From NCBI RefSeq assembly GCF_008831285.2, contig NC_045143.1, positions 24,370,302 through 24,434,301 of the forward strand: 64,000 nucleotides of DNA. Direction: 5' to 3'. This DNA is from Nymphaea colorata (Eukaryota > Streptophyta > Magnoliopsida > Nymphaeales > Nymphaeaceae). The notes beneath the pieces are model-generated. The model did not search any database. It had not been told where the DNA came from and saw only the letters and a program-made list of their open reading frames with translations. Both the position numbers and the translations under genes were made by a program. This document shows, piece after piece, positions 10,405 through 35,539 of the stretch (position 1 is its first letter; each line of letters opens with the position of its first letter).

Positions 10405-11772
10405 ATCCATCCATAACTAAGGTACTAAGAACCATCATTTTATTATGTCATGTTATGCTACTCTTTGAGAGATGATGGTGGGTTTTGCGAATTGCACACT
10501 TCATTCATATAATGAATAATTGCTGGCAGCCTCCTATCATAAGAGTCATCGGGCTGCTCCCAAGACATGATTAAACTGAAAATATATGCTAGAGGACACA
10601 TTCTAGAAAGGAACATTGGAGAGACTGTTTCACTGTTGAGTTAAGCTCTATTTGTACATAATTTCATGAGAAAATAATGTTACGAATTTCATGGGTATGC
10701 ATGTATAGTCTTCACTCTTATGAATAAACATATACATGCTTTGCATAGGCACACATTTTTCTATCTCTTCATTCTTTATTTTTCTTGATCTCTTAGTCTT
10801 TTCTTCTAGTTTGTTCTACATGTCCCAGTGCTGTAGTGTCAACAAATAATGTTGGTTTTGTTATGTGCAATTTCCAAATTTACCATTTTTTACATTTCTT
10901 TTTTAGATGATTTGTTATTACGTTCTATTATATTCATCTTGTGGGTATGATTATTCAGATAAGAATTGTCATTATAGACAGTATCACTTTCCATTTCCGT
11001 CAACATTTTGAAGATTTGGCCCTTAGAACTCGAGTCCTGAGCAGTATGGTTTTGAAGCTAATGAAGGTTGCGAAAAAGTACAAACTTGCGGTAAGCTTGA
11101 GAAATCTTCTGCCTGTTCATTTAATGCAGTAAACGTTAGCTAATAATTATTGTACTTGTCAGGCAATGCTAATCACAATGAACTTTTCCTGTTTGGCAGG
11201 AAATGAATTGTGGAATTTCTACTGGATGCATAACGTATAATTTATTTAATCACTTCCATCTGCAGAGCTTAGTTCTAGTATTTGTTGAATTCAATGATCA
11301 ATGATTTCAGAGCTTTAGATGATAGCCAAACCATAGGTCAAGACTTCATGGCTAGTGAAGCATGCATTGAGGATTTCGCTGGTCTTTGTTTTTTCTTTTA
11401 CTGAAACCTGTTTGTTGGTAGTTGAGCAAAAGACAGTATGTCCATCTTTACTAGAAAACAGGACAAAATTGACAATCCTTTTCAGAGCACAAGGGATCAA
11501 AATGTGGAAGACGATATCTCTGACAGCTGTACTTATGAATGTTATGCATATCTGATCATGGAAATCTTAACTATTATGTTTTCACTGGTTTAAAGAGAAA
11601 TTGTCAAATAAAAAATCACATGTAAATGAATACCAGTAACCTGTATCTGTCAAGCATGTGGAAGTAATGCTAAACTGCATTACGGATGATATGAGTGTGC
11701 GTATGTGTGTATATAACTATATATTGATCTGTAGGTAATGTGTATACTTCTGTAAATACTTATAACAATTGG

Positions 11773-13596: not shown

Positions 13597-16500
13597 CCAT
13601 ACCCCCGCACACAAGTTTTTTGAAAATGGTCAGTACTCGTACCCGCACCGGCACCCGTACCCATACCTATGTGACATATGTTTTAAAACATTGCCTCCAA
13701 TTGCGAAAATTTTAGCTATCAAGAGCTAGCCAATGGCTTGCTTAGCTCCTCTCTTTGCATATATTTAGAAGATGATTCCCATTGTAAACTACTGCTGCTT
13801 GTGCTAAGAACTTATTAATATAATTATATTTCTTATCTCTGTTCCATGTTCCTTTGTGGACTTTATGTGTTGAGCCTCTGTGCTTTAAGTTGGGGAGATG
13901 CTTCATGAGATATAAGCCATGGTTTGTTGCTTATGCATTTCTATTTTGGGTGTATTTTCACAAATATTGTGTTCTTCTCTTTCCTTTAACAGGGTTCATG
14001 GTTTATCTTTTGCAATCGTAAGATTATGTGTGCTCAACCACATCTGCTGCTTGCTTAAATCCTGGCATGACTAGCGAAGAGATGTCAAGGATTTGTTTTT
14101 GACTATTGTCTGTGCCATTTTAATGATTGGATGTAAAGCTGTATTTTTCTGTTTAGCCTGGGACAGTTCTTTGAAGCTACCTGGTGATATTGTAGAAATT
14201 TTGATGTTAGGCTAATAGCTAGTTAACTGCTGGTGCATTTTCTGATGCATCTTGTCATGACTTTGTTTTCTTTTGTCAAGACTGTTTAGCAAAATTTTTA
14301 AAGAGTTTGGATTCAAGGGTTTGGGTTGGATCCAGCATTTACCAAATTCAACTTAATCAGATTATTGGGCTCAGATTAAGATTTAGGTTCAGATCCCATT
14401 TTTTAAAACCAAAATTGGATCTGAAAGGATAATATATATAATCAGATTGGATTATTATGGCAGTTGGATATTGGGCTTGATTTGGATTACGGAACTGGAT
14501 ACTGGATCTGAATTCAGTTAGTAATTGGATCTTGTTTTCTTTTCCATATTTGGTAGCTAATCCATTGACATCCCTCAAATTGATGTTCCATTGCTACATT
14601 TCTGGTCACTATGTATGACACTGTTGATGTTGTTTGACAGGTTGTGCTACTGAACCAAGTTACTTCCAAGTTTGCCAATGGCACATTTCATTTAACTCTT
14701 GCATTAGGTAATTTTTTTCTCTTTTATTGTTTTTTGTTTCTGTTATTACTAAAATTCATGATTGTTACATGTAAAGAAACTTGTTTCATGGATAAAGGCA
14801 CTGATGCATGGTATCCTTGTATAACACAGCTATATTTGTTCTGTTAATGTTTCACAGATAAAGATATACTGTACAAATGGAGGTCTTTGCAGTAGAAAAG
14901 ATATCTAGAAGCTTTAAAATGTTCGCAAATTTATATGGTGTATTTTGTCTACGAGCATCCATTTGAGCACCTAATAATACGAGCATCAGCATGGGTATGC
15001 TAGCCTGCCATGTACTCGTGGTACATTTGAGATGTGATTGTCATTGTTCAAATTGCTGAGAAGAAACTAGAAAAGTCAGTATTCAATAATCCTAATCTCT
15101 GTTTGAATACAGATTCATAAGAAGTTGCAAAGTAGTCCTCCTAATTACAAGAAAATAATAATAAAGAACTCTTAATAAAATTTGTAAAAACACCATGGAC
15201 TAATAATTAATTTCTCTTAACCACCAAAAAAATATAAATATCTCTCGTGACACTCCCCTTCAAGCTGGAGCATAGATACGTATCATGCTTAGCTTGTCAT
15301 AATACCTCAAAAAAATAGAACTTGCAATTGATTTGGTGAATATGTCGGCCACTGATGCTCTGAGGGACATCAATTGTAGATATGTATCTTCATTGCACTA
15401 TGTCATGAATATAATGACAATCCACCTTAATATGTTTTGTCTTACAAAAGAGTGGATTATTTGCAATATACATAGTGGTTTTATTCAAACTTCATCACCA
15501 TGAGAGTAAAAACTTTAACATTCAAATTCATCAAAATTTGACCCACATCATTTTCGATACTGGGGCTATTTCTCTATTTTGATTCTGCATTAGACCTGAC
15601 AATCAGAGTCTTTGCTCTTCCTACACTAGTGCAATAAATGCTTAACATATATGGGTTATTGTTTTAATGGTTGACGTCATAGGCATATTTGTGGTGCATA
15701 GTGACTTGTGAACCTGTACAAAAGCTTTGTTGAAAAGCAAAGCAAGCAACTAGGCTTTTTGAAAACAATAAAACTCTGGCATATGCATTTTATAATAGGT
15801 CTATAGAATATAGGGAGCTCAAATAAATGTAGTAGATTGGTGTTCCCTTTTTGAATGCAAGATTTATACCCTCAAACAAAACATGGAATATATGTGTGTG
15901 AAAGGAACTTCAACATTAAATCTGTCAATATAGATTTGACCCACATCATCTTCAATGCTATCGGAGCCATAGCTCTTTATTTTGATCATGGACTAGACCT
16001 TGCAACTGCATTATGTTTCTTACTCTTCCTACATTAGTGCAATAAATGCCATAACCATGTAACATAAATTGGAATAAAATCCTATGAGTCAATGTTTTTA
16101 ATAGTTGATGTAATTTAACAATAGGCATATTGATGGTACATAGTGACTTGTGAACCTGTATAAAAGTTTTGTTGAAAGGCAAAGCAAGCAACTAGGCTTT
16201 TTAAAAACAATAAAACAAGAGTATAGGCATTTTATAGAAGTTTTGTAGGGAGCTCGAGTAAATGCAGTAGATTGGTGTTCTCTGTTTGAATGCAAGATTT
16301 ATATCCTCAAGTAAATCATGGTATATATGTGTGTATGTTTATGTGCCCGCATGCCTATGTATGTGTGTATGCCTTGCTATATTTAGGTTTCTCAAGGTGT
16401 TGTACCAAATTGAACATGATTAATATTTAGCTTCAGTTTGAGAGGGAGTGTTAAGAAAGTAGGATCTTGTTTGTCCTTAAATGCTAGGGGCTTTACTGTT

Positions 16501-18602
16501 ATTATTGTTTTAAAATTTGAACTAGTCCTTATATAAATCCGGGATTGGATCGATTGAATAAAACCTTCTCTCTTATGCTGCATCCATGTAATGTCAACAA
16601 ATAAGTGCCATCAATGCCATAATCGTTTAATATCAAACAGGTATTTGTGCCTATGCGACTTACATTAAGGTAGGAGAAAATTAATAAAAGGTGAAGACTT
16701 GAAGGAGTGAAAAGAGAGAAGAAGCTAGAAGAAAGAAGAGAACATCGAAAGAGAACAAGAGTTAGAGATTGAGAGATAGAGAGGGAGAGGAACGGAGAGG
16801 ATCATCAAATCCTTTAGGGTCCTAACTCCATTCCCATGCTTGATTCAAGCCTCAAGCTTTCCCATGTCCTTCATGTTCTTAATATCAAGAAAAACATTAT
16901 TTTTGTTTCTAAACTTGTTTCATTCCAATTCTTTTGTTGAATTGACTTCTTCTGTTTGTGTCAAGGATCTTCTAATGAAAACGACATACCCTAGAAGCGA
17001 GCGTCATGGGGACATGTACATCCTTAAGGAAGATCCTACCTCTGTTAATGGGGACTTGAAGCTCGGTTCTTCATCTTTGTCACCTAAGGATTATAGTCTT
17101 TTCAACATAGATAAATGTAATAAGCCATTATGGCATTCTCGTCTTGGTCATTGTAGTCGAGTCTTTATTGAAAAACTTGTGTGTTCTCATTTCATTTCTA
17201 AGTCTAGTTTGGAATTTCCTACAAGTGAGAAAATGTGCTCTAGTTGTTAAATATGTAAGTCATGTCCTTCCTTTCAATTCAATAAATGAAAGAGCTTCAA
17301 GACCTTTTGAAATAGTTTGTTCAGATGTGTGGGTTCAGCTCCTGAAAAATCTAACTCAGGAAGCAGATTTCTGTCACTTTCATTGATCATGTTTCACGCT
17401 TCACATGGATTTATTTCTTAAAGAATAAATCCAAGGTCTTTTCATGCTCTTGTTAAAAATCAATTTCTCAATATCCTTAACTTTCAATGTGATGGTGGGG
17501 GGGATGTTCCTCTCGTGACTTTGTTCATTACCTCCAAGTTAATGGAATTAATCGACAAGTATGTTTCCCGCACAAACCTCAACAAAATGGCATTGCAGAA
17601 GGAAAACATTGACATATTGTTGAAAGTGCTATGACTATGATGCATGCCAGTGGTCTTCCCATGGGATTATGGACAAATGCTTTTCACACTGCAGTCCATA
17701 TTATAAATCATCTGCCTTTGTCTATTTTGAATCATGAGTCTCTATATTTTGTTCTATTTCATAAGGATGAAAATTATGATACTTTACGTGCTTTTGGTTG
17801 TATTTGTTATGTTCATGTTGCTTCTTTACTGAGAAATCAATTTCAGCCCAAAGCAATCAAGTGTAGGTTTGTGGGGTATGTAGGCGATCACAAAAGATAT
17901 AGATGTTTTGATCCTATAAGCAAGCAAATCAAAATTTTAAGAAATGTGATATTTGATTAACATAATTTTGATGATGGAGATGGTATTTTTGTATCACATG
18001 ATTCTCGCATGACTCACTATAATCTTTGGCTCAATGCAAGACTTCTTTCCAGTGCTGATACTCAAGGTATATGTCCATGCATTTCAGATCCAGGTGTTCC
18101 TATGACAGCGCAAAATCATATTGTAGATTATTCAGCTGCCAATATTGACAAGTTTTTTGGACAGATTTATGTTAGAGGTGATAGGAGAATTTTTCCTATG
18201 GTCAATATTGAGCAAACAGTGTGCCCCTCTATAGGAGAACATCCTTCAGCATCATCTACTTTACCTGTTAGAAGATCAGTGAGAGTTCGTCATCCTGTTG
18301 ATTGATGGGTTTGTTATGAGAATTTTAGTATGGACTTTCAGCTGTTTTTATCTCACATTAAGAATGAGGTTGAGCCAACATCATTTTCCCAAGGTGCCAC
18401 TTCTATAACATGCTCCTTTTGATGTCCAATCACAGACATCATAAACACACGAGACCAAATCTCATAGTTAGATCCATCTAACTTTACAGTAGAACCATAC
18501 GAAAATGGATTTCCTCCACTTTTAACTTCATGAGAAAAATCAGATTTATTACTTTCGGCCATCATAAATCTGTCCACAAGAGATCAACCACCAATAGCGA
18601 GA

Positions 18603-18648
<46 letters not shown>

Positions 18649-21600
18649 CTATTGAAAAAGAAACTGATCAACAAGAACAGACGTCCCACACGGCAACGTT
18701 AGATGCGCAGAAACAATCAACCTGCTGTCCAACTGTTGACAGCAATACCACAACAAAGAAGACTGCAATCTGAAGACAGAAAAACGCTGCTACCAGCAAG
18801 CCCACAACTGAAAACGAATCCCCACTGTTTGTATTGTTTGCGCTGACCAACGACTTATCTATTTATGCATCTAACGTTGTTGTACCACAGTTTATCCTTC
18901 ACAGATCATGAATAACGACAGCAAATAAAACCATCAACATAAACTTGCCATAGACGTCATAGATAGCAGTCCTCCACTTGGCTGCGTTGATCATATAACA
19001 TATCAAATCATAGGCGATTAATCAGCGCAGACTCCCACACAGCTGCGATACTATATACACTTCTGAAAAATCCACGGCTGGAGTCTATTCACGCATCTCT
19101 CCTAGCGTGAATAGACTCCTCCACACTGTTCCGTTGCTGGAAAACAGCAACTAGAACAGGCGAGAGGTGAAGGAGAAAGAAAACAGAGGAAGTAGAAGAG
19201 ATCAAGCCTGAAAGGAGACGGAGGATCGCCGACGGTGTGCGTCACGTCCGCGCGCTGGCTGTGTGCTTCAAGTCTCCAGTCACGTCCGTAGCTCTGATAC
19301 CATGTTGCAGCGGAGAAGAAGAGAGTGAGAGAGAGAAGCTGCCGTGAGATTGAACATTGAGAACTCTCTATTACGATAACCTTCATCTCTCTTATAAAAG
19401 AGATTAGGGTTGTTGATAGATTGTGGGTTTCGGGTCCGGATCCATACCCGACCCGCCTTGTAGCCCGTTTTGGGCTCTACTTAAGTCATGTAACCCTAAT
19501 CCTTATGTGTTAATGATAATCTTTAGAGAGAGAGAGTCTGGCTGCTAGTGGGCACCAACTCCTCCTCATTCGTGGTTTTTTCTCCCTCGTGTTGAGGGTT
19601 TTCCACGTTACATCGTGATCATTGTTTCTCTTCTTCTTCGTCTTGTTCGTATTTCTACATGGTATCAGAGCCGTGAAGTTCCGGCGTTTTTGGTTGTCTT
19701 TTGCCCGTGTTAGAGGAGAATCGCCCGACACTGTTCATCGTCTCGCCCGTGCCCGACGCTCGTGCCCGAGCGTCGTCTGTCACCCCGCCGCCGTCTCCGC
19801 CCAGCGCCGCCCTGATCAACGCCGATCAGGATTCCGCCGTCTCCGCCTAGCGACAACCGGCCCAGCGACGCCCTGGTTAGCGCAGCCGCTTCCGCCCAGC
19901 GTCGGCCTGCCCAGCGGCGTTCCCGTTCTGCTGCTTCCGCCCAGCGTCGGCCTGCCCAAACGACGACCTGTCCAGCGGCGGTCTTTTTCCGCCCAACGCC
20001 GTGTCCTTTTCCGGCGCCGTGCCGCTCTGCCTGGTCTGTTTCCGCCCAGCGCCGCGCCGACTGCCTGGTCTGTTCCCGCCCAGCGCCGCGCCGCTTTGCC
20101 TGGTTCTGTTTCCTACTCTCTGTCCGTTTTTTGGTGTTGTATCGTGTGATTGCTTCTTGCTGCCCTTGCTGCCTACTGGTCTGTGATTATGGCAGCCTCT
20201 TCCTCGTCAACCGTCAACACCAATCCCACTGAAATAGGGGCTTTTAGAACGGAGAATGTTCCCATGCAGGACATCACTCTTCGCCTCACCAAGGATAATT
20301 ATTTCTCGTGGTCGCCTGCTATGACCATGGGGATTGCTGGCCGTGGTCGCATGGCCTATATTGATGGGAGCAACCCCGAACCAGCAAGAACAAGTGATGT
20401 GTGGCATACTTGGTTTCTTGAGGATAATCAAGTGAAAACTTGGATTGTCAATTCCGTTTCCGCCGATATTCAGCCCCTTATCCTTCGGAAGAAGACTGCT
20501 AGAGACATGTGGGTGGTCCTCGAGCAAATGTATGGCCAAAAGAAGACCGCAATTCGTACTTACCAAGTAATGAAGACAGTCTATGGCATTCGACAAGGGA
20601 CCTCGTCTGTTGCAGAGTACTATGGGGCTTTGAAAGCCAAGTGGGAAGAGCTTGACTATCATTCTGATATTCCTTGGCATTGTCCCCATGATCAGGCGCT
20701 CTATGTTGCTCATGAATGGGAAAACAGGGTGTTCCTATTTTTAGCAGGTTTAAATGATGAGTTTGAAGGTGTTCGAAGTCAGATTTTGAATTCAGGGGAG
20801 GTGTCCAGTATTGAAGATGTGTACTCCTGTGTTGAAGCGGAAGAACAGCGAAGGCTTGTTACAAAAGAAGGGAAGAGGGAACTTGTGCCCTATAACGAGA
20901 GATCTGCTCTCGTGAGTCGTGGTCCTGGCGGCCCATCTAGGTCTCTTCGCCGGTGCACTCACTGCAAGAAGACAGGTCACACTGTGGATTATTGCTGGGA
21001 TCTTCATCCAGAAAAGAAGGGGAACAGAGGGAGATCTTTGACTGGGAGAACGCCCGTGTCTGAGGTGCAAGCCTCTAGTGGAGAAAAAGTCTCCATTTCT
21101 GCTGACCAGCTTCGTGAACTAAGGGCTTATTTGGGCAGGCTCGATGTCAACAAGACTGAGACCTCAGAGGGAACTACAGCTAATCATGCTCTTGCAGCTA
21201 TTGGCAATCAAGGTAACTCTTCTGTGGGGGAATGGATTGTCGATAGTGGTGCTACTCATCACATGACAGGTAACCCAAAATTGTTTCATGAGTATAAGTT
21301 GTCCTCGGGAAGGGAACGTGTTTCTCTTGCAGATGGTTCCTCTACCTGTGTGGCAGGCGAAGGCACTCTGTCCTTGTTGGACAAATTTCATGTGCAGGGC
21401 GCTTTACATGTTCCCCAGTTTCCTTTAAATCTCTTATCAGTCAGTAGACTTACTAAAGAATTGAATTGTGAACTTATATTCTCTGCCGATCGTTGTGTTT
21501 TGCAGGACTTGGTGACAGGGAAGAGGATTGGGATTGGTTTAGCTTCTGATGGATTATATCATCTTCCCATACGTGTGGCTACTGCTCTGTTGACAGCGAT

Positions 21601-24600: not shown

Positions 24601-27600
24601 TTATGTGTTAATGATAATCTTTAGAGAGAGAGAGTCTGGCTGCTAGTGGGCACCAACTCCTCCTCATTCGTGGTTTTTTCTCCCTCGTGTTGAGGGTTTT
24701 CCACGTTACATCGTGATCATTGTTTCTCTTCTTCTTCGTCTTGTTCGTATTTCTACAAGGGTAAAAAGGGATTTACAAAATAACTCAATGGAAAATAAGG
24801 AAAATATTAAAGATATCTTATAACTCTTTAATATTACAAGGAACCTCCTAAAACATAAAACTTTTCTTGTTCAACAGTAATGGCAATCAACTTCAATATG
24901 TTTGGTCTGTTCGTGGAAGACCGCATTATTTGCTATATAAGTAGCTGCTTTATTATCACATTGCATTTTTATAGGCAGTTCTACCTGAATTCCAAGGTCT
25001 TCTAGCATGCCTCTCACCCACGTGATTTCAGTGGCTGTTTGAGCCATGGCTCGATATTCTGACTCCGCACTCGATCGAGCAACAACAACTTGTTTTTTAC
25101 TTCTCCAAGAGACGAAGTTGCCACCAACAAAGATACAGAATCTCATAGTGGACTTTCTGTCATCAATTGAGTCTGCATAATCTGCATCAGAATAAGCTTC
25201 TATCTGAAGTGAGGTGCTTCTTCTAAATAATAAACTCTTTCCAGGGGAGCCTTTTAGAAATTTCAATAATAACATAGCTGCATCCCAATGGGCTTTTCTT
25301 GGCTTATCCATAAATTGGCTTAGTTTTCCCACAGCAAAGGATATATCAAGTCTAGTAATTGTTACATATAGTAGCTTTCCAATGAGAAACCGATATGATT
25401 TGCTATCAACAAGTTCAGATTTGTCATCATATAAATGAGTGTGAGAGTTCATAGGAATAGATGCTGGTTTAGTTCCAGCCGTACCTGTTTCGTGTAGCAA
25501 ATCAAGAACATATTTTCTTTGAGAAATGACTAGACCTTCTTTACTTCTTGCCACTTCTATCTCCATAAAGTAGCGTAGAGAGCCAAGATCTTTAGTAACA
25601 AAATACTGTTGTAAATACTTGTGTCTTGTATTTCTTGTTCATTGTCACCAGTTAAAATAATATCATCCACATATATCACCATAACAACTATACCTTTTGA
25701 AGTCCTTTTTATGAACAATGAATGATCTAAAGGCGATCTTTGAAACTCAAACTTAGACACAACGTCACACAACTTTTGAAACCATGCTCTAGGACTCGGT
25801 TTCAAACCATATATAGCCTTCTTTAACAAACAACCCTTGGTACACTCCGTCTGTTTCTCAAAGCCGGGTGGTTGCTGCATATAAACCACTTCAGTTAAGT
25901 CCCCATACAGAAAAGCATTTTTAACATCGAGTTGGTACATGTTCCAACCATAATGAACTGCAACAGATATAATGAGGCGTATTGTGCCCAAACGTGCCAC
26001 AGGAGAGAAAGTTTCAAAGAAATCAACACCATATGTCTGTGAGTACTCTTTTGCTACCAACCGTGCCTTGTAGCGCTCAACTGTATCATCTGAGTTGTAC
26101 TTGATAGTGAAAACCCATTTCGAGCCAACAATATCTGTCCCAGAAGGAGGTTCAACGAGATCCCAAGTGTGATGAGATATTAGAGAATCCATCTCCTCCT
26201 TGCCTGGTACCACTTAGAGTCCAACATAGCTTGTTTATGTGAAATAGGAATAGATGTAGCTAACAAGGCATCAATAAATTTGCACATATGATCTCCCACA
26301 TGAGCTGTACTAACAAACTTAGAAAGAGGATGAATTGTGCATTGTCTAATCCCTTTACGCAGTGCAATAGGTAGTTCATCAGAAACAGGAGCATCAAGGG
26401 AACACTCAAGCATGTCATATAATTCAAAACTACTTACCTCCCGAGAGCAAGATGGTGCAGGGTCATTAGATGATGGATTCCTTCTTGAATATGTGACAGG
26501 AGGATCTTTAAACCGTGGAATGGAACAGGTGGGTGATGATGATAAGAGAAGGGACTCAATTGGAATTGGAGGAATTGGAAGAGGAACAGAAGAGGGCATC
26601 TCAGACTTTAGATATGAAGGACTTGCAGGAAAGAATGGAGACGACTCGAGAAAGGTTACATCGGCACTGACAAACTCTCGATTAGATATAGGATCTAGAC
26701 ATCGATACCCCTTTTGATTTTTAGAGTATCCAACAAACACACATTTACTTGCTTGAGCAGCTAGTTTATCTCGATTGGGACCAAGTTTATGTACAAAGCA
26801 TGTGCACCCAAATATACGTGGGGGTAAAGAAAATAAAGCTCTATTTGGGTATAGAATTGTATTGGAATTTTGTTGTCTATGGAAGATGATGACATTCTAT
26901 TTATTAGGTAACATGCAGTCAAAATTGCATCTCCCCAAAATTTGGAAGGCATATGAGAATGAATCATGATTGTGCGGGCTACATCCAACAAATGACGATG
27001 TTTTCTTTCCACTACACCATTTTGTTGAGATGTGTGAGGGCAGGTAAAATGTGGCACAATACCATCGGATTTATAGAATTCAAGTAAATGAGAAGATTTG
27101 AACTCGAGAGCATTGTCAGTGCGAACAACCTTGACACAAGAATTAAATTGAGTCTTTATTTTCAATATGAAAGATTTCAAGATACAAGGAACTTCAGTTC
27201 TGTCTTTCATCAAAAACACGCAAGTGACACGAGAAAAATCATCAACAATGGAAAGATAATAACGAGACGACAACTGACTTGGAACCCGACTAGGCCCCCA
27301 AACATCAACATGAACTAAATCAAATAGAGTTTGACTAGACTGACTTTGACTCGATGGAAAGGAAGTACGACTATGCTTGCCCAGTTGACAAGCTTCACAC
27401 TCAATAGATGTCGTGGAAGAAATCTGAGGACATAGCAGCCGAAGTTTAGGAAATGATGGATGACCCAATCTGAGATGCCAATGGAAGGCACTTGAAGAAG
27501 AATCAACTAAGAATGACGCCTCCTTATTGGATGTATCCAACATGTATATTCCATCTATCTCATGGCCTCCACCAATCTTCCTCCCAGTCGATAGATCCTG

Positions 27601-30600
27601 AAATACACAAGTACCTCTGCAATTCATCTCTTTAGTTAGTTTGCTTACAGATAACAAATTTTTCGGGAATTCAGGGGTATATAGCACATCATGAACATGC
27701 AAAGATGGATAAAGATAAACATCTCCATGTCCTTTTACTGGCGATAGTCTTCCATCCGCCAATCGAACATGTTGGGGTGAATCAAATTTCTGCAGGTTTG
27801 AAATACTAGTATCTCCACAAAAGTGTTTAGAGGCTCCAGAATCAATTATCCAACAACCTTTAGAAGTTGTTTTACTTGCAGAGTACATTGAACTTGTGAC
27901 AGCTGTAGATGCCGATGAGGTAGAAGGAGTATCATTTGATCTATGCTCCATAATTAAATCAATTTCAGCTGGACTTAAGTTAAGAGATGTAGCATCTACT
28001 GAAGCAGCAATGGGATTCGGCTTATGAGCTATACTGATAGACTGTGGGTTTGGAGTAGAACTAGATGAAGATGTCACAGTCGAAGAAGTGGATGAGTTAG
28101 GTTTACCCACTTTGTTCCAACACCTATCCTCTAAGTGACCAAGTCGACTACAATATGTGCACTGAAGTCTTTCACGTCCTCCAGGACCTCAGCCTCTTCC
28201 TCTACCACGGGAAGAGTATAGTCCACTTCTTCCTCCTCCAAATGAAGCAAGGGCAAAAGGTTGTGAGTTGTTCGAGGATGGAGGAAGAGTAACAGCCAAT
28301 TTGTTTAGTCTATTGAAGGCCTCATCAAGGTCAGGAAAATCTGAACCTGTAAGCATTTGAGCCTTGGATGCAGAATAATCAGAAGATAGTCCAGCAAGAA
28401 ATTTAACCACAATCATTTGCTCCATGTGAGATATGAGACAATGCTTACAGGGCCATTTTAAGAAATTCATCTTTTCATAAGTAAACTTCAACTTTGTAAA
28501 ATATTCCGTCAAATTCATGTCACCTTGTTGCATTTATAACAATTCTTGTTAAACCTGTAAAATTTTGCTGATGTTTTTATCTTGAGAGTACGTCTGCCGA
28601 AGAGAATTCCACGTATCTTTGGCTGTATTATAATAACAAAGCCCTGCTGCAATGTGGGACTGAGTGCTATTCATAAGCCAAGCACTAATAATGTTGTTTT
28701 CTTCCTCCCACCGTGCGTATTTACCAGTCTTTTCAACTGGTTCATCTTCTTCCAATATATATTTATTTCCATGTCCAACGACTGACAACATGAAGGTTCT
28801 AGCCCATACATCATAGTTGGCTCCATCAAGTTTGATAGTAGATCCAAACGAGAATGGATTTGAGAAAGCTTTGTATTCAACACCTGCCTCTATATTCTGA
28901 TTTCCAGATTCAGTTCTATCAAGTTGTATAGATCTGTTGGCAGCCATGATACAATCTCAAAATATGAAAATATGAATCTCGGCAGACTGAATATTAACAA
29001 ATAAGAAATCAAGCCAGTCACCAATAGGGAAAAATATCTCTGCAATAGTTATTTCTGCAGCCCCACGACAGACCCACTGCTACAGCAGTACTACACAAAT
29101 TTCCAGATGCGGATAGCTGGCAGCTAACGTGCACAGTTTTGACAGCAGACTTCAATACTAACCTGTCTGCGTCACTCAACTTCAACAATGTTTTGACTTT
29201 GATGATCCACCAGGCATCACACGACCAAGCAGATCAGTCCAGCAGGTCTGAACTTCTTCAACGGCAGCACACAACGAAGCAGATCAGAATTTCTCTGATC
29301 TGAACTTCTTCACCACAGCAACAGAATCAGATCTAATACACTGCAACATGTAGATGATCTAAACAACAACATCAGATTTTATTTTTTTTCAGCAACAGAA
29401 TCAGATCTGATACACCCACCGCAACATGTAGATCTGAACGACGACATCAGATTTTGTTTTTCAGCAACTTCACGACTTCGACAGCAACATAAGGGTGTTA
29501 ATCACGTTTTTACATGTTAAACGTGATTAACCCCTTTCCACCAAACAGTCCCACCGTATCTTTTCGCAGGCAGCAGCAGCTTTAGACGTCCAAGCTTGTC
29601 ATGAATGAGGGGATGAGAAAAAAGAGAAGAAGGGAAGCTGCGTGAAACCCTAGATGGCACGGTCCTAGGTCCGATGCTCTGATACCATGTTGCGTAGAGA
29701 AGTAGAGAAGAGGGACAAGAGAAGAACGTGAGGAAGGAGGAGAGAATAGGTCACAGTCCACTTACGGCTGCTCCTCTTTCATTAGACTAAATAATGATTA
29801 GGGTTATGTTTAACCCTTTACATAAAGAGTCCAACAAAATTTTAAAATTCAGAAAGCTACTTAATATTAAATCCCAACATACATAAAACAACACGTTTCC
29901 TCAACAAAACCATCAAAGATTCTACAAAGGAGCACCAAGCTGCCCTGTTGGGCTACTAACTGGCAGTACCAGCGGATGGCTGGTCCTTCCAGGTGAACCT
30001 CTGCCTGAGAGACGTTGATCTCTTCAGATATATTCAATCATTCGAAGTACAGCTCCACACGAAATACCAGCTCAGTACTCAGTAGGTCATCGCCCGAGAA
30101 TTTTGAAAAGTCCAGTTTCGGCATTCTTACCCCTGCTGGCATCTCCCTGTTTCTCCTATTTGGGTCTACCATAGACACTTGTGGAACTGTTAAAGGCATA
30201 CCTGAAGCATTGGAGGGTCTGGCAAGCGGCGGAGAAGACAGCAACCCGTTCCTATTGCCGTCAGCACCCCCCCCCCCACCCCTTTACACAGTGTTCGGCT
30301 GGAGGAGTTTGGGTTGTTTCTCTGTCGCCCGACCATCTCCCGTAGCAGAGAAGTGATGGTCTGCTGCCCTGCCATGATCAATTGCTTCTCTGCCCTTTGC
30401 ACTTGGATGTGCTGCTCTACCGCCAATAGTTGCTGTCCCACCTCCCGCTGTTTTTCTCCAGACCTTCTAGTCGTCCCGCAAATGCCTGTTGATCGAGCTC
30501 TGCCTGTTTCTTGACAAGCTCCACCTCAGCAAGGGTTTCCGTGCCTGCCATCACCTGCTCTGATACCACTACTAGCTGTCGGCCACCTTGAGCACCTGTC

Positions 30601-32125
30601 GTATTACGTTCAGAAATCTCACTCACACATTTACCCTCTCTGAATAGGGCTAACCAATTACAATTTCCAAAAACATAACTGGATCACCCAACCCTAAACT
30701 ACTTACATGGGTGATCAATACGCGGGTCTCAGGGTACTAGCCCTGATCCTATCTGATTCGATCCCCTCTTATTCTGTATTCTATTGTCAAAATATTTACA
30801 ACTTAGTCCCATGATTAACACAAGGTCTAAAGATGAACAACCCTTGTCAAAGAAATGGCAAAAGAATCAACTTCAGCATGTCCACCCAGTAAGGCAGCGA
30901 TTAAATCCTTAGTGCAGTTTCTCAGAAAGATGAACAGCACGCCTGCAGTAAAATCACCAAACAGTTGGTGAGCAGCACATATTTGAGACAAAGGATGCAA
31001 ACTTCCAAGGCACACTAAGCTTTGGGAAGAAGAGATCAATCAATATGCAGTGAACCTGGATCAAATCTAACAATATCAACAGCAGAACACTACTGCCAAC
31101 CATGTTTCAGATCTGATCCCAAATTGCTGTCAGAACTTTTCACGTCATTTTTTTTGGGGTTATCTCTTTTATCTATCCATCATATTCACATCAAAAAACT
31201 GAGATTAATTTCCCTATCTCCGATCTGTAGGAGATTCAACGTAGACATATCTCCTCATTGGATACCATCTTTTAACTTGCACTTAGGTAGGAGAAAATCG
31301 ATAAAATGTGAGAACTTGAAGGAAGTGAGAAGAGAGAAGGTAGAAGAAATAATAGAGAAAGGAAAGTAAAGAATGTTAGAGAGAGAGAGAGAGAGATGGA
31401 GAATCATCAAATCCGTTAGACTCTTAATCCTACTTAAATAGAGATTAGGGTTAAGACAAAATATTATTCTGGTATTTATTTACTTTAACAAAATTGCGAA
31501 TGACACCCTTAACTAACCTTTTAAAAATGCTTATTTTGACTCAGTATAACTTTAATAAATGCCATAACCGTTTAATAGCCATAAATGTCTATGAGTTAAT
31601 GTTTTCAATAGCTGATGGCATTTAACAATGGGCATATTGATGTTTCATAGTGACTCGTGAACCTGTTATAAAAGCTTGTTAAACGCATTGTCACAAAAAA
31701 CGTGTATAGGTGTTATAAGGCGAGGAATTTCTCGGGTATAATATGGCAAAATTGTATATCTCGGGAATAAAATGGGAAGATCTTGGCAAACTTTAAAAAA
31801 ATTAAAACATTTAATAAATCTTGAAAAGTATAAAAAAATAAAAAATCATAAAACATACGAAAAAACGCAGAAAAACACGTATAATACGCATTTTTTTTAA
31901 AAAAGACGTGTTTTTTTCAGGTTTAATACGACTGACTCTGTTTTGGCGTATTATATGCATTTTTTTTCCAATAGTACACGTTTTTTGTGACAGTGGGAAC
32001 TTAAAAGTGAAAGCAACAAGGATTCCTAAAAACAATATGACGCATAAGCATTTTACTGCAGGTTCATAGTGAGCTCAAAGATCGGTATTCTCTCTTTGAA
32101 TGCTAGATCTGTACCCTCAAACAAA

Positions 32126-32161
<36 letters not shown>

Positions 32162-32600
32162 TAAACCCTGCCATATCATCATACACATCTTTTAATATTG
32201 ATGTGGTAATTAAGTTACCTGTGAACTTTTTTGGTTCCTCTCCTCAAGTTATACCAAATGATTTTGGTTGCCAATGTGCTTCACAAAACTCAAGCTGGGT
32301 AAAGATATTCTGGTCATTTTCTGCTTATTTTTGTCCTAAAAGATTGATATTTGAGCTTTTATATAATTACCCAATAGGGAACATTGGTCCTCCATTCTTG
32401 TTTGCTGATCACTGGGATGTGCAGGGGAGAGCTGGTCGCATGCATGCACAAATCGAGTTATCTTGTATTGGAGTGGAAATGACCGGTTTGCCTCCATTGA
32501 CAAGTCATCATCTTTACCCGCTGCTTCAGCACCATATTCTGTCACAAGCTTGGGAATCCGAAATGCTGCTACCCCATGCAAAAGAATCCGGATACAGTAG
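8275..32600 (+). CDS. RAD51C: RAD51C homologous-recombination ATPase, C-terminal two thirds
   Basis: RAD51C is a RAD51-like DNA-dependent ATPase. In the family it forms paralogue complexes with RAD51B/RAD51D/XRCC2 or with XRCC3 and promotes strand-exchange repair and meiotic recombination in the nucleus. Exons seen: 8275-8308, 8386-8456, 8533-8759, 10959-11090, 14641-14707, 32425-32600. They splice in phase to 235 residues: Walker [10 protein letters not shown], then [31 protein letters not shown], Walker B IVIIDS with [13 protein letters not shown], and finally [15 protein letters not shown]. All junctions are GT/AG and there is no internal stop. The start of the frame is 1 nt into a glycine codon, so an upstream exon with about 125 residues is missing from the window. 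Introns are 77, 76, 2199, 3550 and 17,717 bp; the last is full of retrotransposons. It looks functional by sequence, but whether the 17.7-kb intron is spliced is not shown. Confidence 0.92.
8386..8456 (+). CDS. RAD51C: RAD51C exon ([10 protein letters not shown])
   Basis: A 71-nt exon between TTTGCAG and G|GTACTT. It codes [20 protein letters not shown] plus IYI, a stretch highly typical of plant RAD51C. It ends one base into the aspartate codon. Confidence 0.9.
8533..8759 (+). CDS. RAD51C: RAD51C exon ([10 protein letters not shown])
   Basis: A 227-nt exon coding [19 protein letters not shown] and on to [20 protein letters not shown]. The acceptor is CCTGACAG and the donor AAT|GTGAGT. The first aspartate is shared with the previous exon. 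Confidence 0.92.
8760..10958 (+). other. RAD51C intron with MITE and (AT)n tract
   Basis: This 2199-bp intron has no gene. From about 8851 on, it is present a second time at 33266 onward. It carries an (AT)n run at 9974-10024, a 63-bp near-duplicate CTTTCTCTCTCTTT...GTTGG pair at about 10060-10190, and a MITE-like inverted-repeat element at 10165-10360. Confidence 0.6.
10165..10360. mobile_element. MITE-like element with imperfect inverted termini
   Basis: The left end ATGTTGCCATTTGCCGGATG matches the reverse complement of the right end ATGCTGCTATGTGCCGGATA, and similarity continues to GGTTAAAA (about 40 bp in all). The interior repeats GCAATGATTTATGGT-like text. A decayed copy lies in the duplicate at about 34530-34745, so it predates the duplication, and a relative is in the APUM23 intron at about 51905-52075. 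No coding capacity; superfamily unclear. Confidence 0.55.
10959..11090 (+). CDS. RAD51C: RAD51C exon with Walker B motif
   Basis: A 132-nt, 44-codon exon from ATTATTCAG to GCG|GTAAGC. It codes [20 protein letters not shown] and [23 protein letters not shown] is the Walker B strand. A broken copy of this exon lies at 35273-35390. Confidence 0.92.
11700..13211. other. RAD51C intron sequence, microsatellite, no gene
   Basis: A (TA)n run occupies 11777-11829. The rest is AT-rich with no reading frame or domain I recognise. The phrase GGGGCTGTTTGAATGTG near 11,970 is reminiscent of MITE ends, but I cannot pair it with an opposite end. Confidence 0.4.
13212..13679. mobile_element. non-autonomous hAT element with perfect 8-bp TSD
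   Basis: The element is flanked by GTTTTAAA on both sides (13204-13211 and 13680-13687). Its ends are CTAAGTCACATGGGTAC on the left and, reverse-complemented, ATATGTCACATAGGTATGGG on the right, with subterminal GTACCCG repeats. The same end style (CTATGTCACACGG plus GGTACGGG repeats) marks the intact hAT at 43013-46465. There is no transposase inside, only an (AT)n run at 13559-13592. It lies in the 3550-bp RAD51C intron. Confidence 0.8.
13680..14640. other. RAD51C intron sequence with GGATCTGA-type repeats
   Basis: No gene is seen. The part at about 14289-14580 is a degenerate repeat of TTGGATC and GATCTGAATT motifs and ends AATCCATTGACATCCCT, which resembles the end of a known style of plant hAT MITE. 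A similar end, GGATGTCAGTGGATCAAA, is at about 36497. The last bases TTGTTTGACAG form a splice acceptor. Confidence 0.4.
14641..14707 (+). CDS. RAD51C: RAD51C exon (LNQVTSKF)
   Basis: A 67-nt exon coding [20 protein letters not shown] plus AL and the first base of a glycine codon. The acceptor is GTTTGACAG and the donor TTAG|GTAATT. The split glycine is completed by the exon 17.7 kb downstream. Confidence 0.9.
14708..15038. other. start of the 17.7-kb RAD51C intron, nothing recognised
   Basis: AT-rich sequence without any recognised gene or element. Confidence 0.4.
15039..15480 (-). mobile_element. 3' remnant of a Copia element with LTR
   Basis: On the minus strand, 15480 down to 15253 reads as a broken RNase H tail ([23 protein letters not shown], then ...SSLK) followed by the purine tract CTTGAAGGGGAG. 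From 15252 (TGTCACGAG) to 15039 (CAATGACA) the sequence has LTR-like ends. This is a 3' end only; the rest of the element is not seen upstream of it. Boundaries of the LTR are tentative. Confidence 0.6.
15505..16330 (+). repeat. two tandem copies of a ~410-bp non-coding repeat
   Basis: Unit 1 (about 15505-15905) and unit 2 (about 15906-16330) share long stretches such as GACCCACATCAT, AGTGACTTGTGAACCTGTA, GCAAAGCAAGCAACTAGGCT and TTTGAATGCAAGATTTAT. A third, more decayed unit lies at 31555-32125 near the other end of the same intron. No coding capacity. They may derive from untranslated parts of a retroelement. Confidence 0.7.
16431..16599 (+). repeat. possible Copia 3' LTR with polypurine tract
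   Basis: TTTGAGAGGGAG at about 16437-16448 looks like a polypurine tract. It is followed by TGTTAAGAAAGTAGG and ends at about GTAATGTCAACA, LTR-like ends. The coding part upstream is not recognisable, so the call rests only on this arrangement. Confidence 0.4.
16660..16835. repeat. purine-rich repeat shared with 31283-31450
   Basis: The block TTAAGGTAGGAGAAAAT...AAGAGAGAAG...GGATCATCAAATCC is matched by 31283-31450 in the same orientation. On the minus strand it looks like a pyrimidine-rich LTR or leader end. The two copies flank the retrotransposon nest. Confidence 0.5.
16840..18402 (+). pseudogene. Copia pre-integrase to integrase fragment, decayed
   Basis: The fragment codes, in changing frames, for the Gag-pre-integrase and integrase zinc region (WHSRLGHC ... 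MCSSC), part of the integrase core ([18 protein letters not shown]), then [20 protein letters not shown] and the linker [14 protein letters not shown]. It ends in the linker before RT ([11 protein letters not shown], then [18 protein letters not shown]). Stops occur at about 17249, 17386, 17630, 17960 and 18305. The wording is close to element M2 at 57320-58850, so it belongs to that group. At 18402 it joins abruptly to minus-strand Gag sequence of family C. Confidence 0.8.
18403..18562 (-). pseudogene. Gag N-terminus of Copia C2, truncated
   Basis: Minus-strand frame starting [17 protein letters not shown] at 18562 and continuing [19 protein letters not shown] and [11 protein letters not shown], where it stops at the junction with the plus-strand integrase fragment. 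It matches the Gag start of C3 (41328 downward). Only about 53 residues remain. Confidence 0.8.
18563..19302 (-). other. leader and primer-binding site of Copia C2
   Basis: An untranslated leader with an (AT)n run at 18606-18646. At its 5' end, 19285-19302 on the minus strand reads TGGTATCAGAGCTACGG, the initiator-tRNA-Met type primer site, immediately next to the LTR end CTGCAACA. Confidence 0.75.
19303..19410 (-). repeat. 5' LTR of Copia C2, 3' half (split by Y)
   Basis: This half of the LTR ends CTGCAACA next to the primer site. Its other half is 24763-24876. The break is at AGGGT, which is duplicated on both sides of the inserted Copia Y. Rejoined by eye, the LTR would be about 220 bp, close to the 234 bp of the C3 LTR, and the order of shared motifs agrees. 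Confidence 0.85.
19411..19659 (+). repeat. 5' LTR of Copia Y
   Basis: Runs from TGTTGATAGATTG to CGTATTTCTACA. As the 5' LTR it should hold the element's promoter; I do not see a certain TATA box. It contains CGGGTCCGGATCC and a GAGAGAGAGAG run. It is directly followed by TGGTATCAGAGCC. Confidence 0.95.
19660..20188 (+). other. primer-binding site and GC-rich leader of Copia Y
   Basis: TGGTATCAGAGCC at 19660 is the initiator-tRNA-Met type primer site. The leader from about 19790 to 20110 is strikingly GC-rich and built of about seven imperfect units around TTCCGCCCAGCGYCG. One frame stays open across the leader (19622-20149) but has no ATG, so I do not call it a gene. It may be structured RNA used for packaging or translation control, which is inference. 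Confidence 0.75.
20189..24514 (+). CDS. Copia Gag-Pol polyprotein, intact
   Basis: One frame of 1441 residues with no stop or shift. The frame is open back to 20150, but the first ATG is at 20189 ([15 protein letters not shown]). Order of parts: Gag with [13 protein letters not shown]; zinc knuckle [14 protein letters not shown] at residues 256-269; protease with [11 protein letters not shown], catalytic Asp 352; integrase zinc region from [10 protein letters not shown] (His 489) and core D548, D611, E647; reverse transcriptase with YVDD at 1118-1121; RNase H with SDADWAG (Asp 1284) and SSAEAEYRA (Glu 1325). The order protease-integrase-RT-RNase H defines Ty1/Copia. The stop lies within the first bases of the 3' LTR. 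It makes the capsid and enzymes for cytoplasmic reverse transcription and nuclear integration. Confidence 0.95.
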   Translation: MAASSSSTVNTNPTEIGAFRTENVPMQDITLRLTKDNYFSWSPAMTMGIAGRGRMAYIDGSNPEPARTSDVWHTWFLEDNQVKTWIVNSVSADIQPLILRKKTARDMWVVLEQMYGQKKTAIRTYQVMKTVYGIRQGTSSVAEYYGALKAKWEELDYHSDIPWHCPHDQALYVAHEWENRVFLFLAGLNDEFEGVRSQILNSGEVSSIEDVYSCVEAEEQRRLVTKEGKRELVPYNERSALVSRGPGGPSRSLRRCTHCKKTGHTVDYCWDLHPEKKGNRGRSLTGRTPVSEVQASSGEKVSISADQLRELRAYLGRLDVNKTETSEGTTANHALAAIGNQGNSSVGEWIVDSGATHHMTGNPKLFHEYKLSSGRERVSLADGSSTCVAGEGTLSLLDKFHVQGALHVPQFPLNLLSVSRLTKELNCELIFSADRCVLQDLVTGKRIGIGLASDGLYHLPIRVATALLTAIRKTDKRREDCLQSFMYWHERFGHLPFGILKHLFPDLCSSFDVSSISCDVCQFAKHVRASYPLSSSCANEAFSLIHSDVWGPSGIHTRQGFQYFITFIDDFSRATFIYLLKDRSEVPRIIETFILLVHTQYGANVKTFRSDNAREYMCRPVEEFLRQRGIVHETSCSYTPPQNGVAERKNRQLLNVTRALLFQRNLPKHYWGDAVLTSAYLINRMPSRVLNGRTPHSLLPGSRPPFPLPPRVFGCVCFIHDHSPNVKKLDPRSIKGVFVGYSPTQKGYKCIDPITGRAYVTRDVTFLEHASYFGVNPLQGEQSVGREEYSQRQELQFIDFLDYKKTESLNTVDVPENEERGDNSIEKEGPQLFGQFYSRRGTRTEVMTCDARSTSNPNATPSLDEPSPTEETVETHDEVEKKNDDLPIALRKGVRSCTQHPIGNFVSYSRLGKDYKCFVSTLSLAVIPRTVAEAQSDSKWADAMKEEIDALRRNLTWEVVKIPEAAHLVGSKWVYTIKYKPDGSVERYKARLVAKGFSQKYGIDYLETFAPVAKMKTVRVVISLAVMKEWKMYQLDVKNAFLNGDLEEEVYMHMPPGYEEPEMCCKLKKALYGLKQSPRAWFERLRRVMIRHGYKQGNGDHTLFVKKKESKVTLLLVYVDDMIVTGDDEEEIIKLKGLLATEFDLKDLGKLRYFLGMEVARSSTGLVLNQRKYTLDLLEETGKLGCRPTPTPFDTGHKLSLRDGEPLCEEDKGRYQRLVGKLIYLTLTRPDITFVVNVLSQFMHAPTDAHLKAVDRVLCYLKKNPGKGLLYVKQETVEIEGYSDADWAGCGDTRRSTTGYCVYLGGNLVVWRSKRQDVCSRSSAEAEYRAVAMGVSELLWLKILLTDIGIEIEGPMKMYCDNKSAINLANNPVLHDRTKHVEIDRHFIRERIDAKELILPYMKSEDQTADVLTKALPSASFERNVSKLGMFDMYAQLEGEC
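24509..24757 (+). repeat. 3' LTR of Copia Y
   Basis: Same sequence as the 5' LTR. It is preceded by the polypurine tract TTGAGGGGGAG. The polyprotein stop codon TGA overlaps its first bases. The flanking AGGGT follows at 24758. Confidence 0.95.
24763..24876 (-). repeat. 5' LTR of Copia C2, 5' half (split by Y)
   Basis: On the minus strand it starts TGTTGAACAAGAAAAG at 24876 and has AATATTAAAGAGTTATAAGA, as in the LTRs of C1 and C3. Its outer end lies inside the RNase H frame of Copia A, so C2 inserted into A. Confidence 0.85.
24877..28947 (-). pseudogene. Copia A Gag-Pol, nearly complete but broken
   Basis: Minus-strand coding region starting [17 protein letters not shown] at 28947. Gag runs to 28549, has a stop just after, continues 28533-28189 (zinc knuckle [14 protein letters not shown] at about 28115-28160 in another frame). 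From 28110 to 26761 come protease ([13 protein letters not shown]), integrase zinc region and core ([27 protein letters not shown]). From 26740 come the linker, RT ([21 protein letters not shown]) and RNase H ([20 protein letters not shown]). Frame breaks lie near 28550, 28190, 26750, 26200 and 25560. RNase H is cut at HIEVDCHY by the LTR of C2, so the tail and 3' LTR are lost here. Not functional. Confidence 0.9.
28948..29687 (-). other. leader and primer-binding site of Copia A
   Basis: Untranslated leader with several near-repeats of CAGATCTGA and CAACAGAATCAGATCT at about 29270-29470. At its 5' end the minus strand reads TGGTATCAGAGCATCGG (29671-29687), the usual Copia primer site. Confidence 0.75.
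29688..29836 (-). repeat. 5' LTR of Copia A
   Basis: On the minus strand, TGTTGGACTCTTTATG at 29836 to CTACGCAACA at 29688, next to the primer site. About 149 bp, shorter than the family C LTRs and different from them in sequence. The 3' LTR is not in the window. Confidence 0.75.
29937..30551 (-). pseudogene. Ty3/Gypsy Gag remnant
   Basis: Minus-strand frames from an ATG at 30551 ([20 protein letters not shown]) through a coiled-coil-like stretch to [26 protein letters not shown] and [10 protein letters not shown], the typical start of a Gypsy-type Gag. The frame changes at the poly-C tract near 30270 and again near 30430. It abuts the LTR of Copia A. No protease, RT or integrase follows. 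Confidence 0.7.
30552..30820 (-). repeat. possible primer site and LTR of the Gypsy remnant
   Basis: The minus strand reads TGGTATCAGAGCAGG at 30568-30554, a primer-binding site, right before the Gag ATG. Sequence from 30820 (TGTTAATCATGGG) to 30577 (GGCCGACA) could be its LTR. No second copy is at hand, so the ends are a guess. Confidence 0.4.
30821..31282. other. intron sequence, nothing recognised
   Basis: The minus strand keeps a 70-codon open frame at 30827-31039, but I recognise no domain in it. The plus strand has nothing convincing. Confidence 0.35.
31283..31450. repeat. purine-rich repeat, partner of 16660-16835
   Basis: Homologous to 16660-16835 in the same orientation (TAGGAGAAAAT, AAGAGAGAAGG, ATCATCAAATCC). 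It includes an (AG)n run at about 31378-31396 and ends with GAGATTAGGGTTAAG, LTR-like wording if read from the minus strand. Confidence 0.5.
31555..32125 (+). repeat. third copy of the ~410-bp repeat, interrupted
   Basis: Matches the tandem units at 15505-16330 (AATGCCATAACC, AGTGACTCGTGAACCTGTTATAAAAGC, GCAACAAGG.TTCCTAAAAACAATA, CTCTTTGAATGC, TACCCTCAAACAAAACATG). It is broken by a short inverted-repeat element at 31689-31992. A (TG)n run (32130-32160) follows. Confidence 0.65.
31689..31992. mobile_element. MITE-like element with 18-bp perfect inverted ends
   Basis: TGTCACAAAAAACGTGTA at the left end is the exact reverse complement of the right end. The interior is AT-rich, with TACG and CGTTTTTT motifs and no coding. 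I cannot find a matching target duplication. Similar text occurs in the AT-rich repeats at 61325-61565 and 62505-62885. Confidence 0.65.
32425..32600 (+). CDS. RAD51C: RAD51C last exon with stop codon
   Basis: A 176-nt exon after the acceptor GGGATGTGCAG. Its first two bases complete the glycine split from the exon ending at 14707. It then codes [20 protein letters not shown], a stretch with [11 protein letters not shown], and [10 protein letters not shown], ending CKRIRIQ and TAG at 32598-32600. This is the conserved C-terminal part of RAD51C (family wording [13 protein letters not shown] and VTS.GIRN). A longer open frame on the same strand (32128-32676) overlaps it but is in another frame. 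Confidence 0.92.
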
Positions 32601-35272: not shown

Positions 35273-35390
35273 GAGAAGAATTGTCATTATAGACAGTATC
35301 ACTTTCCACTTCTATCAGCGTAAGATTTGGTCCTTAGAACTTGAATCGTGAGCAGTATGGTTTTGAAGCTATGAAGATTGCGAACTTGCG
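35273..35390 (+). pseudogene. dead copy of RAD51C exon 10959-11090
   Basis: Still recognisable by GAATTGTCATTATAGACAG, ATCACTTTCCA and GAACTTGCG|GTAAGC. It is 118 nt against 132 in the true exon. The acceptor CAG has become CGG, and small deletions shift the frame and bring in stops. It cannot supply a functional exon. Confidence 0.85.
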
Positions 35391-35539
35391 GTAAGCTTGA
35401 GAAATATTCTGCCTATCCATTTAATGCAGTAATCATTAGCTTGTACTTGTTAGGTGATGTTAATCACAAGTAAAAATATATTGTGGAATTTCCAGTAGAT
35501 GCATAACGTCGAAATATTTCCTTATTTAATCACTTCCAG

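What the first reader, a model, noticed from the sequence alone, without database searches (positions are those of the whole stretch)
14641..32600. RAD51C carries a 17.7-kb last intron filled with retrotransposons
Seen: the exon ending at 14707 stops one base into a glycine codon, and the segment 32425-32600 after a good acceptor completes it and continues with [14 protein letters not shown] to a stop. Between them are at least four Copia elements or fragments, a Gypsy remnant and MITEs. Family knowledge: these two stretches are adjacent in RAD51C. Inference: the gene still splices across about 18 kb. This matters because RAD51C is a DNA-repair gene, and premature ends in the intron LTRs could reduce it. 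The last exon is easily missed since a longer open frame overlaps it.
Basis: partly seen in the sequence, partly recalled or inferred. Interest (0 to 1): 0.7.

Follow-up and report, generated by a model that had tools for sequence, protein, structure and literature searches.

The report
Plant RAD51C with transposon-filled last intron
This stretch of what looks like a plant chromosome holds most of the DNA-repair gene RAD51C, whose last coding piece is separated from the rest by a 17.7-kb intron packed with retrotransposons (one of them very recent), with a dead partial copy of the gene just downstream; it is a clear example of a known kind of plant gene.

Summary
Exon 14641-14707 ends one base into a glycine codon; exon 32425-32600 completes it and ends in TAG. 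With four upstream exons the join gives 235 residues whose best solved relatives are animal RAD51C proteins, aligned without a gap at the junction. The 17,717-bp intron holds five Copia pieces and a MITE; the Gypsy remnant was not confirmed.

Two things were missed. First, one Copia (19411-24757, same strand as the gene) is brand-new: LTRs identical at 249 of 249 bases, target-site duplication AGGGT, one open frame. Without it the intron is about 12.4 kb. Second, 8858-11704 is duplicated as a decayed copy at 33267-36486, just after the gene. Its exon lost its acceptor and gained a stop and two frame-breaking deletions, while the main copy agrees with animal RAD51C at 6 of 7 differing residues: the main copy has been under selection.

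Best reading: a functional RAD51C that splices out a transposon-filled last intron, probably by read-through of intronic heterochromatin. Splicing was not shown, the N-terminal exons were not found in the window, and other copies could not be sought because the genome search did not complete. New member of a known kind.

The parts
8275..8308 (+). RAD51C exon with Walker A ([12 protein letters not shown], first base from an exon not found); first exon found in the window
8386..8456 (+). RAD51C exon ([23 protein letters not shown])
8533..8759 (+). RAD51C exon ([13 protein letters not shown]...IASQDN)
10959..11090 (+). RAD51C exon with the Walker B region ([25 protein letters not shown]...; motif name recalled)
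14641..14707 (+). RAD51C penultimate exon ([22 protein letters not shown] + first base of Gly)
14708..32424 (+). last intron, 17,717 bp, GT-AG
15242..15485 (-). old relic of a Copia 3' end
   Evidence: DNA similarity to 4256-4478 and 24878-24954 only; frames full of stops; no Pfam test
16780..18302 (+). Copia fragment, frame-broken: SH3-like domain above Pfam's cut-off, GAG-pre-integrase match below it
18356..18583 (-). Copia gag fragment (Pfam match below the curated cut-off); overlaps 18400-18593, which is 88% identical to 41167-41359
19411..24757 (+). very young full-length Copia: LTRs 19411-19659 and 24509-24757 identical 249/249; TSD AGGGT at 19406-19410 and 24758-24762; tRNA-Met-type primer site after the first LTR (motif recalled); one open frame 20150-24514; inserted into an older Copia LTR (parts 19338-19405 and 24763-24876)
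24763..28956 (-). frame-broken Copia: integrase, SH3-like and RT domains above Pfam's cut-off, a gag match below it, in separate pieces
31689..31992 (.). MITE-like element with 18-bp exact terminal inverted arms
32425..32600 (+). RAD51C last exon: rest of the split Gly, [15 protein letters not shown]...KRIRIQ, stop
8858..11704 (+). source segment of the partial tandem copy (intron DNA plus exon 10959-11090)
33267..36486 (+). decayed partial RAD51C copy, interrupted at about 35541-36061 by other sequence; K2P 0.11-0.14 from source
35274..35390 (+). pseudo-exon: acceptor AG changed to GG, deletions of 4 and 11 bp, Arg codon changed to stop

Best explanation
A plant RAD51C gene whose last intron has grown to 17.7 kb by repeated, nested retrotransposon insertion, the latest very recent. 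Shown: intact exons with GT-AG borders and a continuous RAD51C frame; the transposon content; an identical-LTR Copia; a decayed partial tandem copy that gives an internal neutral yardstick. Inferred: RNA polymerase II transcribes through the (presumably methylated) transposons, the 14707 donor is spliced to the 32424 acceptor, and, as for other plant genes with heterochromatic introns, read-through may depend on the IBM2-EDM2 machinery suppressing proximal poly(A) sites. Transcripts that fail would stop inside the intron and encode a protein lacking the last 57 residues.
For: Six exons join in one frame to 235 residues; RAD51C chains are the top four hits, ahead of the other RAD51 relatives listed. 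The last-exon product alone finds only RAD51C. In the exon shared with the dead copy, 7 of the 32 codons compared differ by residue (2 more are synonymous); the main copy agrees with the 8gj8_A RAD51C row at 6 of 7, the dead copy at 0 of 7, so the changes lie on the dead copy while the main copy was kept. In PMC6861927 (passages, section 6 read) a Gly-to-Asp change at CDS nucleotide 629 of maize RAD51C, placed in exon 8 of 8, goes with sterility; 629 is the second base of codon 210 of 268, the 59th residue from the end, against the 58th for the split Gly here: probably the same glycine and intron position (inference by arithmetic). PMC7145194 (sections 7, 10) and PMC10241880 (section 12) show plant genes read through heterochromatic introns, and premature poly(A) when IBM2/EDM2 is lost.
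Against: No RNA or methylation data. The roughly 120 residues before Walker A were not found in bases 1-8274 (query recalled), so completeness is unproven. Intactness of the last exon alone is weak: a neutral simulation keeps it intact with probability 0.52, 0.31, 0.20, 0.10 and 0.04 at 0.02, 0.035, 0.05, 0.07 and 0.10 substitutions per site. The 32424 acceptor has the lowest pyrimidine fraction of the gene's six acceptors (0.47). The selection evidence concerns the exon upstream of the long intron, not the last exon. On the IBM2 part: rice OsJMJ718, the published case with last-intron heterochromatin, was not among the genes affected in all OsIBM2 lines, and its authors suggest such a position may be more resistant (PMC7145194 section 10).
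Confidence: 0.83

Rival explanations
1. The locus is a recently silenced or 5'-truncated RAD51C, and the working gene lies elsewhere in the genome.
For: N-terminal exons not found in the 8.27 kb upstream; a neighbouring partial copy is already dead; a fresh Copia has just landed in the intron.
Against: The six exons found, their ten internal splice borders and the first acceptor are intact, and one upstream exon has been conserved since the partial duplication. The upstream region itself holds Copia and hAT relics, so a long upstream intron that leaves the window is an easy explanation.
Confidence: 0.1
2. Most transcripts end inside the intron, and the main product is a RAD51C shortened by the last 57 residues, with 45 intron-coded residues ([10 protein letters not shown]...C) after the glycine. 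This can coexist with a minority of full-length, working transcripts, so it is not exclusive of the best explanation.
For: Reading on past 14707 stays open for 45 codons after the glycine before a stop; Copia and Gypsy sequences are known termination sites of plant gene transcripts (PMC10241880, section 12).
Against: A single residue change in what is probably the corresponding exon goes with sterility in maize (PMC6861927), and the last exon still encodes a RAD51C-like C-terminus.
Confidence: 0.12
3. The long intron or the duplication is an assembly error.
For: Repeat-rich DNA assembles badly (general knowledge); no reads were available.
Against: The window has no N; the two copies of the duplicated segment differ by K2P 0.11-0.14 with many indels, too much for haplotypes; the young Copia has a perfect TSD.
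Confidence: 0.03

Closest known systems
MSH1 genes of green plants (PMC10487979; abstract, section 4 part 1 of 2 and section 7 read)
   Different: Different gene (organelle MutS homologue); intron here shorter (17.7 kb), in a RAD51 paralogue, and it is the last intron.
Rice genes with heterochromatic introns, including OsJMJ718 (last intron) (PMC7145194; abstract, sections 7 and 10 read)
   Same: Transposon-bearing intron in a gene presumed expressed; OsJMJ718 also has the heterochromatin in its last intron.
   Different: Methylation and IBM2 dependence were measured there and not here; in rice such introns are biased to the 5' end of genes; OsJMJ718 was not affected in all OsIBM2 lines.
Arabidopsis RPP7 with COPIA-R7 (PMC7529245 abstract; PMC10241880 section 12)
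   Same: Copia inside a gene, with possible control of full-length transcript by intronic heterochromatin.
   Different: RPP7 is an immune-receptor gene with tested EDM2 dependence; here no expression evidence.
RAD51C of maize and rice (PMC6861927 passages and section 6; PMC4019848 one passage)
   Same: Same gene family; maize has 8 exons and a last exon of about the same coding length by arithmetic.
   Different: No long transposon-filled last intron is mentioned in the passages I saw.

Membership tests
RAD51C (RAD51 paralogue) | Best match to RAD51C rather than RAD51, DMC1, RAD51B or XRCC3 | tested here: met
   Top four distinct sequences are RAD51C or 'RAD51 homolog 3' (= RAD51C, recalled), E 1.3e-56 to 1.4e-50; next RadA 2.8e-29 (60 of 66 matches shown)
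RAD51C (RAD51 paralogue) | Rad51 ATPase core with Walker A and B | tested here: met
   Pfam Rad51 PF08423 E 4.7e-29, 101.8 bits, profile 37-243 of 244; Walker names recalled
RAD51C (RAD51 paralogue) | N-terminal domain before Walker A | tested here: inconclusive
   Not found in window 1-8274 with a recalled plant query; best pre-Walker hit 20.4 bits at 482-508; the window ends
Spliced gene with a heterochromatic transposon-filled intron | GT-AG borders and frame kept across the intron | tested here: met
Spliced gene with a heterochromatic transposon-filled intron | Transposons inside the intron | tested here: met
Spliced gene with a heterochromatic transposon-filled intron | Spliced transcript | not testable with these tools
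   no RNA data held
Spliced gene with a heterochromatic transposon-filled intron | CHG/H3K9 methylation of the intron and IBM2/EDM2 dependence | not testable with these tools
   no epigenome data held
Copia LTR retrotransposon (19411-24757) | LTR pair, TSD, gag-integrase-RT order | tested here: met
   4 of 5 pieces of the element matched Copia-type or retroelement Pfam families, the 3'-most piece 23900-24511 none
Gypsy remnant (about 30041-30525, minus) | Gypsy gag or pol domain match | tested here: not met
   no Pfam family at E 0.01 for 2 of 2 pieces; of two shorter peptides, one none and one a below-cut-off Arc capsid match E 0.025

The most novel reading that the evidence does not exclude
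The transposon-filled last intron acts as an epigenetic switch on meiotic recombination: when transposon silencing (or IBM2/EDM2 read-through) is weakened, RAD51C transcripts end in the intron, the C-terminal exon is lost, and homologous recombination falls, tying recombination competence to the state of transposon silencing. The very young Copia would make the switch polymorphic within the species.
Probability: 0.07. Interest if true: 0.75.

Novelty: new member of a known kind. Interest (0 to 1): 0.3.

Why it matters
RAD51C is needed for fertility in maize and rice (abstract starts of PMC6861927 and PMC4019848), and in maize one residue change in its last exon goes with sterility. Here that exon depends on splicing across a growing transposon pile, one insertion of which is so new that it is probably still polymorphic (inference). 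That gives a natural with-and-without comparison for how much intronic transposon load an essential gene tolerates. For annotation, it shows a last exon that gene finders could miss or replace by the overlapping 182-codon frame.

Tried and rejected
Searching the window's own genome for other RAD51C copies and for the first exons: 8 identical requests, none answered. Rfam and tRNA scans of the window: nothing. N-terminal exons in the window: not found. Dating the older minus-strand Copia by its LTRs: the right-hand LTR could not be matched reliably (only about 55 bp at 80%, partly the primer site), so no age is given. Treating intactness of the last exon as proof of selection: rejected after the simulation, which itself assumes 55% transitions and 75% frame-breaking indels. 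Reading 15511-16345 and 31554-32156 as the two LTRs of one old element that contains the whole pile: the blocks occur in a different order and number on the left, so left open. Gypsy remnant: looked for, not confirmed. Copies of exon 14641 or of the last exon in the downstream duplicate: nothing above chance level (one search printed at most the best 59 hits for the RAD51C query). A nuclear localisation signal in the C-terminal tail, and a known short RAD51C isoform in Arabidopsis: both recalled ideas, looked for, found no support in what I saw, dropped. Papers on a transposon-filled RAD51C intron in plants: one search listed all 14 papers holding its terms, none described as such in title or abstract start; one search listed 12 of 73, and none of those 12 holds the word RAD51C, so it says nothing about RAD51C. 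No claim of absence from print is made.

Full report
Check of the observation. Exon 14641-14707 follows ..TTTGACAG and ends TTAG|GTAATT; exon 32425-32600 follows ..GATGTGCAG and ends CAG TAG. The join completes a glycine codon and reads ..[63 protein letters not shown]. With the upstream exons 8275-8308, 8386-8456, 8533-8759 and 10959-11090 it gives 235 residues in one frame, the first base of the first glycine being supplied, since it lies in an exon not found; the five introns are GT-AG. Against the Protein Data Bank the four best distinct sequences are RAD51C (8gj8_A 1.3e-56, 8gja_A 1.3e-56, 8faz_C 4.8e-51, 9zzr_C 1.4e-50; the last two are named RAD51 homolog 3, which is human RAD51C by recall, and 8gj8 is from the worm Alvinella by recall); the next is RadA at 2.8e-29 (60 of 66 matches shown). 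The printed 8gj8_A alignment has no gap at the junction. The 58-residue last-exon product alone matches four sequences up to E 1, all RAD51C, best E 2.9e-8; Pfam gives Rad51 at 4.7e-29 for the join and only 0.047 for the last-exon product alone. So this is RAD51C, and the last exon is real.

What is not in the window. The match starts at residue 125 of chain 8faz_C, so roughly 120 residues are missing at the front. A query recalled from plant RAD51C found nothing convincing in bases 1-8274; the best pre-Walker hit, 20.4 bits at 482-508, lies in a stretch similar to the ends of the Copia-like element at 56.7-60.6 kb. The first exons probably lie upstream of the window behind another transposon-rich intron, but truncation is not excluded.

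The intron. 14708-32424 is 17,717 bp. Pieces were searched apart, 10 and 9; 13 of the 19 had a Pfam family at E 0.01 (one of these is the hAT frame at 43.5 kb, outside the intron). The element at 19411-24757 is a complete Copia on the gene's strand: LTRs identical over 249 of 249 bases (the single mismatch of the 252-base repeat lies outside the LTR), 5-bp target-site duplication AGGGT on both sides, a primer site TGGTATCAGAGC after the first LTR (motif recalled), gag, integrase and reverse-transcriptase domains in 4 of the 5 pieces searched, one open frame 20150-24514. Zero differences in 249 sites puts K below about 0.012 (rule of three, by hand), under about 1 million years at a recalled rate of 6.5e-9 per site and year, which may not fit this unidentified plant. 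It sits inside an older Copia LTR whose two parts, 19338-19405 and 24763-24876, match the LTR of another copy at 42.4-42.6 kb at 74% and 81%. Without it the intron would be 12,365 bp. Further Copia pieces: 24763-28956 minus, broken into several frames, integrase, SH3-like and RT above Pfam's cut-off and gag below it; 16780-18302 plus, broken, SH3-like above the cut-off; a gag piece 18356-18583 minus (E 0.0015, below the cut-off; 18400-18593 is 88% identical to 41167-41359); and an old 3' relic at 15242-15485 minus, by DNA similarity only. A MITE-like element with 18-bp exact inverted arms lies at 31689-31992. The Gypsy remnant was not confirmed. Hand-drawn repeat intervals cover 15,467 of 17,717 bases, 87%; this is a rough count by eye, includes unconfirmed stretches, and no transposon library was used.

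Bases 8858-11704, which include exon 10959-11090, occur again at 33267-36486, in the same direction, with 666 bases between the stop codon and the copy. K2P is 0.1415 over 2143 sites and 0.110 over 422 sites. The second copy is dead: its exon (35274-35390) lost the acceptor (CAG to CGG), has deletions of 4 and 11 bp, and an arginine codon turned into a stop. Of the 44 codons, 34 lie before the second deletion and 32 of these were compared (2 fall in the first deletion): 2 differ silently and 7 by residue. The main copy agrees with the 8gj8_A RAD51C row at 6 of 7 and the dead copy at 0 of 7. So since the duplication the main gene has been conserved while its neighbour decayed. This is the only evidence of selection obtained; it concerns one exon upstream of the long intron and one outgroup row. 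Copies of the two last exons were not found downstream.

How it works. Most likely the gene is transcribed through the pile and spliced from 14707 to 32424. Step by step: intact splice borders and frame are shown; constraint on the main copy is shown for one exon; transcription, splicing and methylation are inferred. Published work gives the mechanism: in rice and Arabidopsis, genes with heterochromatic introns need IBM2 (and EDM2) for full-length transcripts, and without them polyadenylate early in the intron (PMC7145194 section 10; PMC10241880 section 12). Rice OsJMJ718 also has heterochromatin in its last intron, but was not affected in all OsIBM2 lines, and its authors suggest such a position may be more resistant (PMC7145194 section 10); heterochromatic introns are biased to the 5' end of rice genes (section 7). 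A transcript stopping in this intron would add 45 intron-coded residues after the glycine and lose the last 57. In maize a Gly-to-Asp change at CDS nucleotide 629, placed in exon 8 of 8, goes with sterility (PMC6861927, passages and section 6); codon 210 of 268 is the 59th from the end, and the split glycine here is the 58th, so it is probably the same residue (inference). The last exon is therefore very likely essential, which argues for working splicing.

Weak points. A neutral simulation with the indel-to-substitution ratio measured on the duplication keeps the last exon intact with probability 0.52 at 0.02, 0.31 at 0.035, 0.20 at 0.05, 0.10 at 0.07 and 0.04 at 0.10 substitutions per site, so its intactness alone proves little. 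The 32424 acceptor has the lowest pyrimidine fraction of six. The genome search for other copies did not complete. The plant is not identified; that it is a plant is inferred from the protein and the transposons.

Comparison. [quoted passage not shown] This locus is a new member of that kind, in RAD51C, with an intron of modest size by that scale. What lifts it slightly is the last-intron position, the probably essential exon behind it, the very young sense-strand Copia and the built-in dead copy as a neutral yardstick.

Noticed in passing
33267-36486: Decayed partial tandem copy of RAD51C intron-exon DNA just downstream of the gene; source 8858-11704.
   Followed up: yes
43534-45540 (minus): Open frame of 668 codons with DUF659 and hAT dimerisation domains, a hAT-type transposase in one frame; a 65% identical stretch lies at 5350-5845.
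   Followed up: partly
18356-29690: One Copia LTR (split by the young insertion) seems shared by two minus-strand Copia units: a primer-site-like motif and gag piece on its left, the 3' end of the next unit on its right, as could follow unequal recombination (inference).
   Followed up: partly
56718-60593: Another Copia-like element on the plus strand with end repeats 94% identical (K2P 0.030); domains not searched.
   Followed up: no
431-4670: Old Copia-like element upstream of the first RAD51C exon found, seemingly interrupted at about 1917-3480 by unrelated sequence (by reading; similarities).
   Followed up: no
50779-51101 and 41738-41909: Tandem doublets of about 161 bp (99%) and 85 bp (100%).
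   Followed up: no
15511-16345 and 31554-32156: Related repeat blocks near both ends of the intron, doubled in tandem on the left; identity unknown.
   Followed up: partly
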